The notes beneath the pieces were generated by a model. It was not told the origin of the DNA. It did no database searches and was given only the letters and a program-made list of their open reading frames with translations. Both the position numbers and the translations under genes were made by a program. Below are positions 45,539 through 49,942 of a DNA stretch of 64,000 bases, piece by piece. Positions within the stretch are counted from its first letter, which is position 1. The number at the start of each line of letters is the position of its first letter. This DNA comes from Pyxicephalus adspersus (Eukaryota; Chordata; Amphibia; Anura; Pyxicephalidae), in assembly GCF_032062135.1 (NCBI RefSeq), contig NC_092859.1:68137380-68201379 (forward strand). Reading direction: 5' to 3'.

Positions 45539-46444
45539 TCACAGCTGGCCAAAGAAATCACAGGGTTTCGTCCAGGACAGGTACATTGCCTGGATATAGG
45601 TTATACGCAGAGTATTTTTCTGTTTAGTCAGTTTTCCTTTTGACCTGAAGGTGGGGTTGAAGTACCAGGCTGAATGACAATGAACTTCTTGGCCAGGTGG
45701 GGGACCTAAAGAGGCCTGGGTATGATCAGGTGTAACTGTCTGACCTGAAATGCATCCTGGAAGTTAGGCTGGGGATATAAACTCCCAGCCTGCTTCTTTC
45801 TGTGACTCAGTGTTGGCTGGTGATCTAGGAGGAGGTCCAAGGTGAGCTGTGAGTAAAGACACAGACTTTGTTGGAAAAGCTTTATGGTTAGGGCCTTAAG
45901 CTGAGTACACACGTCAGATTTTTATCGCCCCATAATCGGCATCGGCCAGATATCGGGCGAAAATCTGGCGTGTGAACAGTCCGCGTCGTCCATCGTCCGA
46001 ACGACCGTCCTGGCGGATCCACGGACGATGAATGACGGCCGATTCCTAATGAAAGGAAAGGGGGAGAGCGTGCAGCAGGGTGCCGATCCGTCGTTCTCCC
46101 CCTCCCCTCTCCATAGAGCAGAACAGTGCTGTATGTACAGCACCGTTCATGCATCGTGTAGTCCTTTGTCGTTGGAAAGGATCGTGAAAGATCCTCTCCA
46201 ACGACAAAAATTGCACGTGTGTACGCAGCTTTAGAGTCCTGCAGAGCACTAGGTTGGCCTGGATTGTTACTAAAGGGAACTAACAGTTAGTTAGTGGCCA
46301 GGCTTTATTTTGCTGTTTGATTTATTTTGTCAGTTTTTGTGTGAAAATAGTATTAGTGAATAAAACACTTGATGCACTTTTAACTTGATGGCCCTGTTTC
46401 CTGTTTGAAACCCCCCCCCCCTCGTTGCTACGGGCGATCTCACA
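45539..46444 (+). mobile_element. 5' LTR of the chimeric gypsy-type element
   Basis: It starts TGTCACAGCTGGCC and ends CGATCTCACA, giving TG...CA borders. About 570 bp remain after removing the nested MITE at 45899-46230. It is followed two bases later by TGGTGGAGGATTCGGGC, a plausible tRNA primer-binding site, and then by a gag start. CAGGGTTTCGTCCAGG, ACAGGTACATTGCC and AGGCTGAATGACAAT recur in the partial 3' LTR at 49868-49942, confirming it as a repeat. Confidence 0.75.
45899..46230. mobile_element. Harbinger-like MITE nested in the LTR
   Basis: The ends AGCTGAGTACACACG and CGTGTGTACGCAGCT, flanked on both sides by TTA (45896-45898, 46231-46233), place it in the same family as 7376-7893. 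It is 332 bp with no transposase. It entered after the LTR, so it gives a relative age. Confidence 0.9.
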
Positions 46445-46446
46445 TA

Positions 46447-46463
46447 TGGTGGAGGATTCGGGC
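46447..46463 (+). promoter_or_regulatory. Possible primer-binding site
   Basis: TGGTGGAGGATTCGGGC lies two bases after the LTR end. TGG matches the CCA terminus of a tRNA, and the rest is compatible with an acceptor and T-stem. The tRNA was not identified. Confidence 0.4.
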
Positions 46464-46494
46464 AGCTTTATAAGCAGGTGTTTGGAAGGCCAGC

Positions 46495-46935
46495 ATGGAG
46501 AAGATACTAAAACAGCTTGTTTTGGCAAATGCCAACCAACAGCAGGCCAATGCGAAGCAAAAGCGTACTAACCAACATCTGCTGCTAGGTCTGGAAAAAG
46601 CGGAGGCCCACCAAGAGGAATTGTTGGAAATACAAGCACAGAGCTACCAACAACAATTAGATGCACTAAAACAGCAGATATCTTTACGAGAGCAGGCTGA
46701 TGGCGAGAGTGATGCTGGGCATTTGTCAGTTTTTCGGGTAAGCCAATTATTGCCAAAAATGACTGCAGATGATGATCCTGAGGTGTTTTTGACTACATTT
46801 GAAAGAACTGCGGAGAGAGAGAGGGCTGTACCCAAGCGCAGTGGGCGGGTATAGTGGCGCCATTTCTGACAGGGGAGTAGCAAAAGGTGTATGGTTACCT
46901 GGCCCCAGACGACGCCAAGTGTTATGTGAACCTTA
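46495..46935 (+). pseudogene. Gypsy-type gag, N-terminal part
   Basis: The ATG at 46495 opens a Gln-rich coiled-coil-like stretch (QQQANAKQKRTNQHLL and YQQQLDALKQQISLREQ), followed by LPKMTADDDPEVFLTTFERT, a hallmark of Gag from a vertebrate gypsy group. A frameshift near 46840 moves to WAGIVAPFLTGE, stop, then LAPDDAKCY, the next conserved Gag block. From about 46953 the frame reads LGVNPAVRP and then runs without a stop into topoisomerase-like sequence. No zinc knuckle, protease or RT follows. Gag would form the virus-like particle; the break shows this copy no longer does. Confidence 0.75.
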
Positions 46936-47029
46936 AAACTTAAAGGAGGAGTCTGGGTGTGAACCCTGCAGTGCGGCCCAACGAGTTGACAAATAGACTT
47001 ACCAGACACCTCCAGAAAAGGTTGTTACC

Positions 47030-47520
47030 CAGGGCAACACAGAAGAATTTCTTTGCTGACTGGAGAGTGCAGAAGATTAAAGTAGAAAAGAAGACCATAT
47101 AGCCATTAGATAAATGTAACAAGTATTTCTTCGATGGAAATGAGGAGAGGAAAGCATTGCCTAAGGAGGAGAAACAGAAATTAAAGGAGGAGGCCAATAA
47201 GCTTTAGGAAGAGTACAGAAATCACATACTGGATCAGCATCAGGAAAAAATCTGAAACTTCAAAAATTAACCACCGGGTCTTTTCTGTGGCACCAGGTGA
47301 CCACCCCAAAATGAGAATAAAACCAGAAGATGTCATTATAAACTGCAGCAAAGACTCAAAGATTCTGGAGCCCCATCCTGGCCACAGGTGGAAGGAAGTA
47401 CGCTGTGATAACAGGGTCACCTGGCTGGCTTCATGGACAAAAAACAATTCAGAGTTCAATCAAGTACATCATGTTGAACCCCAGTTAAAAACTCAAGGAG
47501 GAAAAGGATTGGCAGAAATA
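47030..47520 (+). pseudogene. TOP1MT: Captured DNA topoisomerase I fragment (TOP1/TOP1MT)
   Basis: One frame gives KNFFADWR, KEEKQKLKEEANKL, ILDQHQEKI, then GDHPKM, IKPEDVIINCSKDSKI, PGHRWKEVRCDNRVTWLASW and IKYIMLNP...KLKEEKDWQK, in the order of the core domain of type IB topoisomerase I. The choice of residues (EEKQKLKEEA, LDQHQEKI) fits the mitochondrial paralogue somewhat better. It spans several exons without introns, so it comes from mRNA. The active-site Tyr region is absent. There are at least four stops and one frameshift. It follows gag in the same frame from 46953 to the TAG at 47100-47102. The enzyme relaxes DNA supercoils; this fragment cannot. Confidence 0.85.
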
Positions 47521-48514: not shown

Positions 48515-48883
48515 GTGGAAGTGAAGGCTGGAAAAGTGCTTGGAAACATGAAGCCTTCAAAACCAACAAAAATTAAAAAGGAAACGTAAAGAAAACTTTC
48601 CAATGTAAGCTGTGCAGCTATACTTGTCCCAGACGCTCAAATCTTGATCGTCACATTCAGAGGCACATAAGAACTGGTTCTGGGGAAAAGCTTTATGAAT
48701 GCTACGTTTGTCATGTTCGGTTTATGTAGAGTGGAACCAGGAAAATGCACCTTCTGCAAAAGCCTACTGAGAATGTAGCCAAAGTTCGCTGTCCCAATTG
48801 TGATACAGTTTTCGATGACTGTTATGGCCTTATTCAACATCAGAAGTCTCACAATAATGAAAAGCAATTAAAATGTGATTGGG
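48515..48883 (+). pseudogene. CTCF: Captured CTCF zinc-finger fragment with internal jumps
   Basis: The pre-finger stretch GKVLGNMKPSKPTKIKK is followed, after a frameshift, by finger 1 (FQCKLCSYTCPRRSNLDRH). The sequence then jumps to GEKLYECYVCHVRFM, stop, SGTRKMHLLQ and ENVAKVRCPNCDTVF, then jumps again to CYGLIQHQKSHNNEKQLKCD. These are blocks of the CTCF 11-finger array in the right order, but whole fingers between them are missing. The joints fall near repeated finger or linker sequence. One finger has lost its last His (Pro instead). CTCF is the vertebrate insulator and loop-anchor protein; this fragment has a stop and frameshifts. Confidence 0.85.
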
Positions 48884-48885
48884 GT

Positions 48886-49623
48886 GGGGCAGGGAAAAGT
48901 GTGAAGACCATCACCACAGTGGCTGTTAATGGTGTCATGCCAATAATACAGAAACTGAAAGCTCAGCTTGCTGTAGCAATTAAAATTTCTGGCATTGGAC
49001 TAGAAAAGATTGAAGAGAGGCTGCCCATTTTCTATCATTTTGTATCTAATGCCTCAGAAGCTGTCCCTGGTGCTAAAGATGCAGTGATTCAAAGTATAAC
49101 TGGAGTGGTGGTAAGACCAAGGGAGCAGTGTATGACAGTGTTGAGATGTCTGTTATAAATGGATGCATTAACACAGTGCTTGGGAGCAGTGCGGTGTGCA
49201 AAATGAACAGCAGTGTTCAAATCTGAAATCAAAGTCTGAAAATCTTCTTAAACAATACCCATCACCAACTGATGGGGAACTAGAAAAGGAGGCGGCAAAA
49301 ACAGAGGGGTTTGGGGTGTTGACAAGGTAAGCTACAATTTACGCTTGGGATCTTTCTCTACCAAGGCACTCAAATGTGCTTACCATCAAGCATTGGCAAG
49401 ATTCAGGCATGCTAAATGCAGAAGTCAGGAGGCCATTGCTCAGCCACAGTCTACAGTTGACCTGATTGAATATGCCAGGGAGAACATGAATAATGCCAAT
49501 CAGAAAATACATAATGCACAGGAGAGGTTCCACAACAAAAAGGGAGAAACCTGGACAAAAGCAGAAAGTGCTGTCCAAGCAAGATGGTTCAACCAAGTAC
49601 TAGATAACGCAAGAACCAGGTGA
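48886..49623 (+). pseudogene. PLIN2: Captured perilipin fragment (PLIN2-like)
   Basis: GKSVKTITTVAVNGVMPIIQ, KLKAQLAVAI, GLEKIEERLPI and AVPGAKDAVIQSITGVV match the PAT domain and start of the 11-mer repeats of perilipin-2/-3. After a broken middle, 49340 onward gives LRLGSFSTKALKCAYHQALA, TVDLIEYARENMNNANQKIH and NAQERF, matching the perilipin four-helix-bundle region. Perilipins coat lipid droplets. No introns are present. The frame joins straight to the CTCF fragment on the left and ends at a TGA (49621-49623) beside the LETM1 fragment. PLIN2 is the best fit from motif wording; PLIN3 is possible. Confidence 0.8.
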
Positions 49624-49624
49624 C

Positions 49625-49795
49625 GAGTTAACGAAAGGAGGAAATTGACATTCTGAGTGATACCTGCACTTAGCTGAAAGAGCAGAAGAAATTACTAACA
49701 AAGGAGAAGGAAGAACTGCTAGAGCTGAAGGATAATGTTCAGGAGTACAGTGAGGATCTGGAAGAAACTCATTTAAGGACACTTTGGTCCAGAGC
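49625..49795 (+). pseudogene. LETM1: Captured LETM1 fragment
   Basis: The frame reads EIDILSDTCT, stop, LKEQKKLLTKEKEELLELKD, then NVQEYSEDLEET, matching the C-terminal coiled coil of LETM1, the inner-membrane mitochondrial cation/proton exchange factor. It is only about 55 codons long. It ends before the partial LTR. Confidence 0.8.
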
Positions 49796-49867
49796 ACCGG
49801 GTCTCTAAAAAGAATATCTTTTGTTTGTTTGTTTGTTGTGTTTGACCTAGAAAAGGGAGGGCACATG

Positions 49868-49942
49868 TCTTCAATGGCAGGGTTTCGTCCAGGAGGACAG
49901 GTACATTGCCCAGATACCTGTTATACAGGCTGAATGACAATT
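49868..49942 (+). mobile_element. Partial 3' LTR of the chimeric element
   Basis: CAGGGTTTCGTCCAGG, ACAGGTACATTGCC, GTTATAC and AGGCTGAATGACAAT follow the 5' LTR (45563-45682), but the ~60 bp between the last two boxes are deleted and the rest of the LTR is missing, cut by the LINE that starts at 49943. Confidence 0.75.

What the first reader, a model, noticed from the sequence alone, without database searches (positions are those of the whole stretch)
45539..49942. Chimeric LTR retroelement carrying fragments of at least five host mRNAs
Between a gypsy-type 5' LTR plus gag start and a partial copy of the same LTR, the usual pol is replaced by same-strand, intronless fragments recognisable as topoisomerase I, NASP, CTCF, a perilipin and LETM1, plus an unidentified Lys/Glu-rich stretch. 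The source genes are functionally unrelated and normally have introns. Serial template switching among cellular RNAs packaged in virus-like particles would produce this. One or two captured genes per element are known; five or more in one unit would be unusual.
Basis: partly seen in the sequence, partly recalled or inferred. Interest (0 to 1): 0.92.

Follow-up and report, generated by a model that had tools for sequence, protein, structure and literature searches.

The report
Retroelement mosaic of five host mRNAs
A decayed stretch of likely frog DNA, lying between a full and a partial copy of one LTR-like repeat, carries same-strand pieces of five different host genes (TOP1, NASP, CTCF, PLIN2 and LETM1), which were likely joined when a retroelement's reverse transcriptase jumped repeatedly between cellular mRNAs.

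Summary
From 45537 to 49941 lie an LTR-like repeat, a PBS-like motif, a gag-like ORF start, same-strand fragments of TOP1, NASP, CTCF, PLIN2 and LETM1, a short tail with a purine tract, and a remnant of the same LTR (56 of 61 aligned bases). Tools matched all five genes. CTCF/PLIN2, PLIN2/LETM1 and LETM1/tail meet within a few bases, without poly(A); fragment ends share no repeat beyond chance. NASP and CTCF carry internal forward jumps; both NASP jumps fall on shared dipeptides (chance about 2% each). PLIN2, NASP and CTCF are equally decayed (22-24% of conserved residues changed; p=0.96), as one capture would predict; LETM1 is less decayed (3 of 37; p=0.048). PLIN2 groups with Pyxicephalus adspersus (support 0.81), so the host is likely that bullfrog or a relative. 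Template switching in LTR-element particles is the best mechanism, inferred rather than shown. LTR capture of mRNA is known, with three genes in maize Bs1; five in one vertebrate unit is a new variant. Untested: other genomic copies, parental introns, one round versus several. The gag call rests on recall; 558 of 2725 nt stay unassigned.

The parts
45537..46444 (+). 5' LTR-like repeat, begins TGTCAC and ends CTCACA; interrupted by a nested element with inverted ends
   Evidence: second partial copy at 49878-49941; ends read
45895..46234 (.). nested element with inverted ends of about 33 nt inside the LTR, predicted DNA transposon
   Evidence: inverted-end alignment 45895-45927 / 46202-46234
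46447..46463 (+). PBS-like motif TGGTGGAGGATTCGGGC, two bases after the LTR end
   Evidence: sequence read; its role is inferred, no tRNA was compared
46495..46990 (+). gag-like coding start, frameshifted, with in-frame stops; 3' limit approximate
   Evidence: three-frame reading; recognised by recall only, no significant Pfam or PDB match
47037..47527 (+). TOP1 fragment (DNA-binding part), in-frame stops and frame changes; 47447-47527 rests on recalled human TOP1
   Evidence: Pfam Topoisom_I_N profile positions 61-147 then 149-205; PDB human TOP1 E 7.9e-20
47528..47714 (+). Lys/Glu-rich stretch, unidentified; weak resemblance to the SCNM1 acidic tail, below cut-off; holds a 15-A run at 47570-47584
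   Evidence: no match at E<=10 in PDB; PF15805 E 0.0016, 18.5 bits against cut-off 27; A-run
47715..47817 (+). NASP fragment, acidic repeat region as in Pyxicephalus NASP
   Evidence: tblastn of P0124
47818..48068 (+). unidentified stretch between two NASP parts
   Evidence: no significant match in PDB (best E 0.87) or Pfam
48069..48415 (+). NASP fragment with two internal forward jumps, at about 48200 (73 residues skipped) and about 48352 (13 residues skipped)
48524..48879 (+). CTCF fragment: linker, finger 1, then finger 4/5, then finger 7, so two internal jumps; the first 50 nt or so rest on recalled human CTCF
   Evidence: PDB alignments; frames
48880..49616 (+). PLIN2 fragment, collinear with residues 47-279 of Pyxicephalus PLIN2; the last 56 nt read by eye
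49619..49766 (+). LETM1 fragment, 41 of 44 residues identical to Pyxicephalus LETM1, one stop, one frame change near its start
49767..49861 (+). tail with purine-rich tract GAAAAGGGAGGG, predicted 3' internal end of the element and PPT
   Evidence: sequence read; role inferred
49866..49941 (+). 3' LTR remnant, TGTC start, internal deletions, truncated
   Evidence: alignment to 45561-45681, 56 of 61 columns identical; BLAST E 9e-08

Best explanation
Positions 45537-49941 are a decayed, predicted LTR-retroelement copy whose inside is mostly same-strand pieces of five host genes (TOP1, NASP, CTCF, PLIN2, LETM1), likely joined by repeated template switching of a reverse transcriptase among mRNAs packaged with the element's RNA. 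Inferred steps: minus-strand synthesis began at the PBS, moved to the 3' end of the RNA and copied the purine tract and tail. It would then have jumped to LETM1, PLIN2, CTCF, NASP and TOP1 mRNAs in turn and returned to the element at gag. That needs at least six jumps between templates, plus two jumps inside NASP and two inside CTCF. The product would be integrated like a normal element copy, because both LTR ends were kept. Most simply this happened in one round of reverse transcription, but several rounds are not excluded. Shown directly: gene identities, order, strand, abrupt junctions at three of the joins, decay, and the repeated LTR. Inferred: packaging, template switching, integration and the host species.
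For: Five gene matches, all in the orientation of the LTR and gag-like ORF. Two copies of the same LTR outside them. Junctions CTCF/PLIN2, PLIN2/LETM1 and LETM1/tail lie within a few bases. No poly(A) at the end of an identified piece: the two A-runs of 8 or more in 46990-49864 are at 47570-47584 and 48166-48173. The ends of TOP1, NASP, CTCF, PLIN2 and LETM1 share at most 4-5 nt, as random pairs do, so no target-site repeats. PLIN2 runs unbroken over 233 residues in 678 nt and TOP1 over about 144 profile positions, so no sizeable intron lies inside. Pieces come in 5'-to-3' order within each gene, as forward jumps on one RNA would give. Both NASP jumps lie on a shared dipeptide, chance 1.7-1.8% each. 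Fraction of conserved residues changed is equal for PLIN2 (22 of 93), NASP (9 of 41) and CTCF (22 of 100), p=0.96. LTR capture of mRNA by switching at microsimilarities, in theory several times, is a described process (PMC5408686, passages).
Against: The gag-like ORF has no significant profile match. PBS and PPT are motif readings. The 3' LTR is a 76-nt remnant, so the element's own target-site duplication cannot be tested. LETM1 is less decayed than the rest (3 of 37 against 53 of 234; p=0.048), which would fit a later capture. A simple model puts LTR-LTR divergence below fragment decay (p=0.01-0.03), which would mean the mosaic is older than this insertion; under three assumed numbers of extra mismatches at the LTR edge the gap narrows and in one of them reverses. 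A 15-A run at 47570-47584, about 42 nt past the end of TOP1, could be an old poly(A). 558 of 2725 nt between TOP1 and LETM1 are unassigned. PLIN2 and LETM1 hits of Pyxicephalus list the same longest-contig length, so those two genes may share a chromosome. The NASP jumps could also be later DNA deletions or splice variants. Parental frog DNA and introns were not seen, and the search for other copies did not complete.
Confidence: 0.72

Rival explanations
1. The same template-switching process, but spread over several retrotransposition rounds: a non-autonomous element lineage picked up one gene piece after another and this is one copy of a family.
For: LETM1 is less decayed than the other three fragments tested (p=0.048). 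LTR-LTR divergence may be lower than fragment decay (p=0.01-0.03 under one way of counting). Bs1 of maize is described as three distinct transductions (PMC13317346 passage).
Against: PLIN2, NASP and CTCF show equal decay (p=0.96). The LTR comparison rests on 61 columns and weakens or reverses with assumed mismatches at the LTR edge.
Confidence: 0.33
2. A LINE machinery made the chimeric or separate processed pseudogenes, which ended up inside or next to an old LTR element.
For: LINE reverse transcription makes bipartite and tripartite chimeras (PMC2104539 abstract). An L1-like domain just below its cut-off lies nearby (43048-43875). A 15-A run lies about 42 nt past the TOP1 piece.
Against: No poly(A) at the end of an identified piece and no target-site-like repeats at the piece ends. 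The identified pieces are internal coding parts. Five of five share the strand of the LTR. CTCF, PLIN2 and LETM1 meet within a few bases.
Confidence: 0.1
3. DNA-level capture, as by Pack-type DNA transposons, brought gene pieces together.
For: Such elements can capture pieces of unlinked genes (PMC13317346 passage), and an element with inverted ends sits in the LTR.
Against: The nested element (45895-46234) does not enclose the fragments. PLIN2 and TOP1 span hundreds of coding bases without a break, which genomic capture would not give if the parents have introns there, as recalled.
Confidence: 0.05
4. Assembly or library artefact: cDNAs or reads joined wrongly.
For: The locus was not checked with reads.
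Against: The fragments carry stops and frameshifts, and PLIN2, NASP and CTCF have 22-24% of conserved residues changed, so they are not recent cDNA contaminants. No N lies within 44000-52000; the only N run of the window is at 15343-15775.
Confidence: 0.04

Closest known systems
Bs1 LTR retroelement of maize
   Same: LTR element with pieces of several different host genes inside (three: ATPase, xylan endohydrolase, glucanase), as reviewed in PMC13317346 and PMC5408686 (passages)
   Different: Plant; three genes; described as giving a transcribed and translated chimeric gene. Here five identified genes, likely a frog, with stops and frame changes in the pieces
LTR-mediated retrocopies of animals (Tan et al. 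2016, cited in PMC5408686 and PMC8232201; the paper itself is not held)
   Same: mRNA piece joined to LTR element ends by switching at microsimilarities
   Different: The passages read do not describe one element carrying five parents
Crocodilian endogenous retroviruses that captured KIT-ligand or nectin3 mRNA (PMC4299795, passages)
   Same: Vertebrate LTR elements with captured host mRNA
   Different: One gene per element, in multi-copy families of which some keep open reading frames
Bipartite and tripartite LINE chimeras (PMC2104539, abstract)
   Same: Direct fusion of copies of different transcripts by template jumps
   Different: LINE machinery, two or three partners, no LTRs; the fungal tripartite one has 14-bp flanking repeats

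Membership tests
LTR retrotransposon (Ty3/gypsy-like) | two copies of one long terminal repeat around the body | tested here: met
   45561-45681 against 49878-49941, 56 of 61 columns, BLAST E 9e-08; the 3' copy is only a remnant
LTR retrotransposon (Ty3/gypsy-like) | PBS after the 5' LTR and purine tract before the 3' LTR | tested here: inconclusive
   motifs read at 46447-46463 and 49850-49861; no tRNA compared
LTR retrotransposon (Ty3/gypsy-like) | gag and pol of the family | tested here: inconclusive
   gag-like ORF gives no significant Pfam or PDB match and no relative in viral contigs; none of the 8 ORFs scanned matches a pol profile
LTR retrotransposon (Ty3/gypsy-like) | target-site duplication | not testable with these tools
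   3' LTR truncated at about 49941
LTR-mediated retrocopy | processed, intron-free host coding sequence between LTRs | tested here: inconclusive
   PLIN2 and TOP1 are unbroken over long spans, but parental introns are recalled and were not seen
LTR-mediated retrocopy | short shared sequence at switch points | tested here: inconclusive
   2 of 2 NASP jumps share two residues, chance 1.7-1.8% each; inter-gene junctions could not be tested without parental DNA
LINE processed pseudogene | 3' poly(A) at each piece | tested here: not met
   A-runs of 8 or more only at 47570-47584 (unidentified Lys-rich stretch, about 42 nt past TOP1) and 48166-48173 (inside the NASP part)
LINE processed pseudogene | target-site repeats around each piece | tested here: not met
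   longest shared word between the ends of five pieces is 4-5 nt, reached by 58-96% of random pairs

The most novel reading that the evidence does not exclude
The whole mosaic is one reverse-transcription event: a single cDNA with at least six switches between five host mRNAs and the element's own RNA, and four jumps within templates, still completed with both LTR ends and integrated. That would be a fossil record of how many different mRNAs shared one particle.
Probability: 0.4. Interest if true: 0.75.

Novelty: new variant of a known kind. Interest (0 to 1): 0.6.

Why it matters
It suggests that an animal LTR element can shuffle pieces of five different genes into one mobile unit, beyond the three of maize Bs1. 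If made in one round, it is a trace of mRNA content and switching rate inside a retroelement particle of the germ line, and a raw source of new exon combinations. If it is a family, it could seed antisense or piRNA regulation of the five parent genes (speculation).

Tried and rejected
A single common parent gene for all fragments: rejected, five different genes match. A recent cDNA contaminant: rejected because of stops, frameshifts and decay. The high score of catfish protein P0126 looked like a second match for the unidentified 48416-48523 stretch; it is a LETM1 segment that occurs twice in that protein. LTR dating: tried, inconclusive because it depends on assumed mismatches at the LTR edge. 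Pyxicephalus-private PLIN2 sites: only 4, of which the window shares 1 and has the majority residue at 2, so uninformative; the tree placement (support 0.81) is the better evidence. Identification of the Lys/Glu stretch and two other stretches: no significant match; only a sub-threshold SCNM1 resemblance. Gag by profile or structure library: nothing significant; by viral contigs: none. Rfam over the window: 0 matches at gathering score.

Selection of rows: for the decay counts I used 16 frog PLIN2 proteins (reference plus 15, out of 120 listed of 236 matched), 11 frog LETM1 proteins (out of 120 listed of 406), 3 of 5 NASP hits (P0124 and P0125 left out), and for CTCF only the human sequence as printed, so human-frog differences are counted as changes there. 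For CTCF I left out two residues at the join of two ORFs, both changed; with them it is 24 of 102. LETM1 counts residues 547-590 of P0128 only. A first run had one PLIN2 piece in a wrong frame (21 of 83) and a misplaced short LETM1 piece (3 of 40); one search replaces it. TOP1 was left out of the decay test because no frog TOP1 was fetched. Microhomology in the CTCF jumps was not measured. Borders in the span count differ by a few bases from the parts table.
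Full report
What was checked. The finding places fragments of TOP1, NASP, CTCF, a perilipin and LETM1 between a gypsy-type LTR plus gag start and a partial second LTR. I listed ORFs of the region on both strands, read its + strand in three frames and tested each piece.

Gene identities. TOP1: a read-through of 47034-47297 or so matches Pfam Topoisom_I_N positions 61-147 (E 5e-15), and ORF 47185-47532 matches positions 149-205 (E 1.7e-16) and human TOP1 in the PDB (E 7.9e-20). 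NASP: 48158-48427 matches human NASP in the PDB (E 2.3e-07) and frog NASP (E 7.4e-11, Staurois); 47715-47817 matches the acidic repeats of Pyxicephalus NASP. CTCF: PDB E 2.1e-30 and 8.7e-21. PLIN2: E 7.1e-80, top hit Pyxicephalus adspersus at 72% identity. LETM1: 41 of 44 residues identical to Pyxicephalus LETM1. All are on the + strand. Outside this region the four proteins tested (one PLIN2, two NASP, one LETM1) have no other match in the window at E 0.01.

Element frame. The left repeat begins TGTCAC at 45537 and ends CTCACA at 46444, with a PBS-like motif two bases later. The right copy aligns at 56 of 61 ungapped columns (BLAST E 9e-08) and is preceded by GAAAAGGGAGGG and TGTC. I left out the last 9 matching columns of that alignment because they run into the next repeat. 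A nested element with inverted ends sits in the left LTR. The gag-like ORF is recognised by recall only: no significant Pfam or PDB match and no viral-contig relative was found. The tail 49767-49861 is predicted to be the element's own 3' end. For context, the frog Silurana holds over 700 Amn-san and about 200 Gmr1-like Ty3/gypsy copies (PMC4131045, passages).

Junctions. CTCF ends and PLIN2 begins within a few bases of 48879. PLIN2 and LETM1 meet between about 49613 and 49619. LETM1 stops at 49766, where the tail begins (strings). None of these carries a poly(A) run. The two A-runs of 8 or more are at 47570-47584, in the unidentified Lys-rich stretch about 42 nt past TOP1, and at 48166-48173, inside the NASP part. 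The ends of the five pieces share words of at most 4-5 nt, which 58-96% of random pairs also do, so there is no sign of target-site repeats. Internal jumps: NASP skips 73 residues at NLQL/YQL and 13 residues at QKE/IKE. Such two-residue overlaps have a chance of 1.7-1.8% each in a simple count of all cut pairs. CTCF goes from finger 1 to finger 4/5 and then to finger 7. A later DNA deletion at a short repeat could also give such jumps, so they support but do not prove reverse-transcriptase switching. Alternative splicing of the parents was not excluded.

Decay as a clock. At residues invariant among the orthologs used, PLIN2 has 22 of 93 changed and NASP 9 of 41; against human CTCF, 22 of 100 are changed: homogeneous, p=0.96. 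LETM1 has 3 of 37 changed, lower than the pooled 53 of 234 (p=0.048; all). Equal decay of three fragments fits simultaneous capture; LETM1 is a mild exception with few sites. All four together give p=0.24. Comparing with LTR divergence gave p=0.01-0.03 for fragments older than the insertion, but under three assumed numbers of extra LTR-edge mismatches the gap narrows and in one case reverses, so I draw no conclusion.

Host. A FastTree of 19 frog PLIN2 proteins and the window piece joins the window to Pyxicephalus with support 0.81 and a long terminal branch, 0.28 against 0.03. Pyxicephalus adspersus is a ranoid frog of family Pyxicephalidae. The species is inferred. The PLIN2 and LETM1 proteins of Pyxicephalus list the same longest-contig length, 157633650, so these two parents may share a chromosome; nothing here shows that they are neighbours.

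Unassigned parts. 47528-47714, 47818-48068 and about 48416-48523 have no convincing parent. ENIEFDGSEEE resembles the SCNM1 acidic tail below Pfam's cut-off, a lead to a sixth gene. The span count gives 2167 of 2725 nt assigned between TOP1 and LETM1, with approximate borders.

Mechanism. In LTR elements the minus strand is copied from packaged RNA, so each switch to another mRNA adds a sense-strand piece between PBS and PPT (established knowledge). That predicts one strand, no target-site repeats at the pieces, forward order within each gene and retained LTR ends, as seen. PMC5408686 (passages) describes this mechanism and says that switching can in theory occur several times. I commit to LTR-particle template switching at 0.72, with one round favoured at about 0.4 and several rounds at about 0.33.

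Known cases. Bs1 of maize has three genes (PMC13317346, PMC5408686; passages). Two crocodilian ERV groups captured one gene each (PMC4299795, passages). LINE chimeras have up to three partners (PMC2104539, abstract). In searches of the open library no listed title or abstract start names a case with five parents; most listed papers were not opened and subscription papers are not held, so this is not proof of absence.

Limits. The search of the host's own genome did not complete (12 calls). There is no parental DNA and there are no long reads.

Noticed in passing
window 45895-46234: An element with inverted ends of about 33 nt is nested inside the 5' LTR, so it inserted after the retroelement or rode in its LTR.
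   Followed up: partly
window 49942-50408 and 11131-11548: A repeat of about 470 nt (69% identical) begins at 49942, next to the end of the 3' LTR remnant; its 80-aa ORF has no Pfam match. It may have truncated the LTR.
   Followed up: partly
window 276-788 and 61589-63912: Other broken LTR-element coding parts: an aspartyl protease match at 276-788, RNase H matches at 61589-62521 and a Tf2-1 SH3 match at 63187-63912.
   Followed up: partly
window 43048-43875 (minus): L1-like RNA-binding domain just upstream of the chimera (E 2e-4, just below cut-off).
   Followed up: no
window 50574-51211: Nested inverted repeats (77 nt at 91%, 60 nt at 87%, 29 nt at 100%) suggest a fold-back DNA element.
   Followed up: no
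window 47523-47580: ENIEFDGSEEEKK resembles the SCNM1 acidic tail (PF15805, E 0.0016, below cut-off): possible sixth captured gene.
   Followed up: partly
window 48730-49158: CTCF and PLIN2 pieces lie in one open frame of 142 codons across their junction.
   Followed up: no
window 18072-18590 (minus): ORF with a GDSL lipase match below cut-off (E 2e-6), of a kind seen in some retrotransposons (recalled).
   Followed up: no
PLIN2 (P0001) and LETM1 (P0128) of Pyxicephalus: Both proteins list the same longest-contig length, 157633650, so two of the five parents may sit on one chromosome.
   Followed up: no
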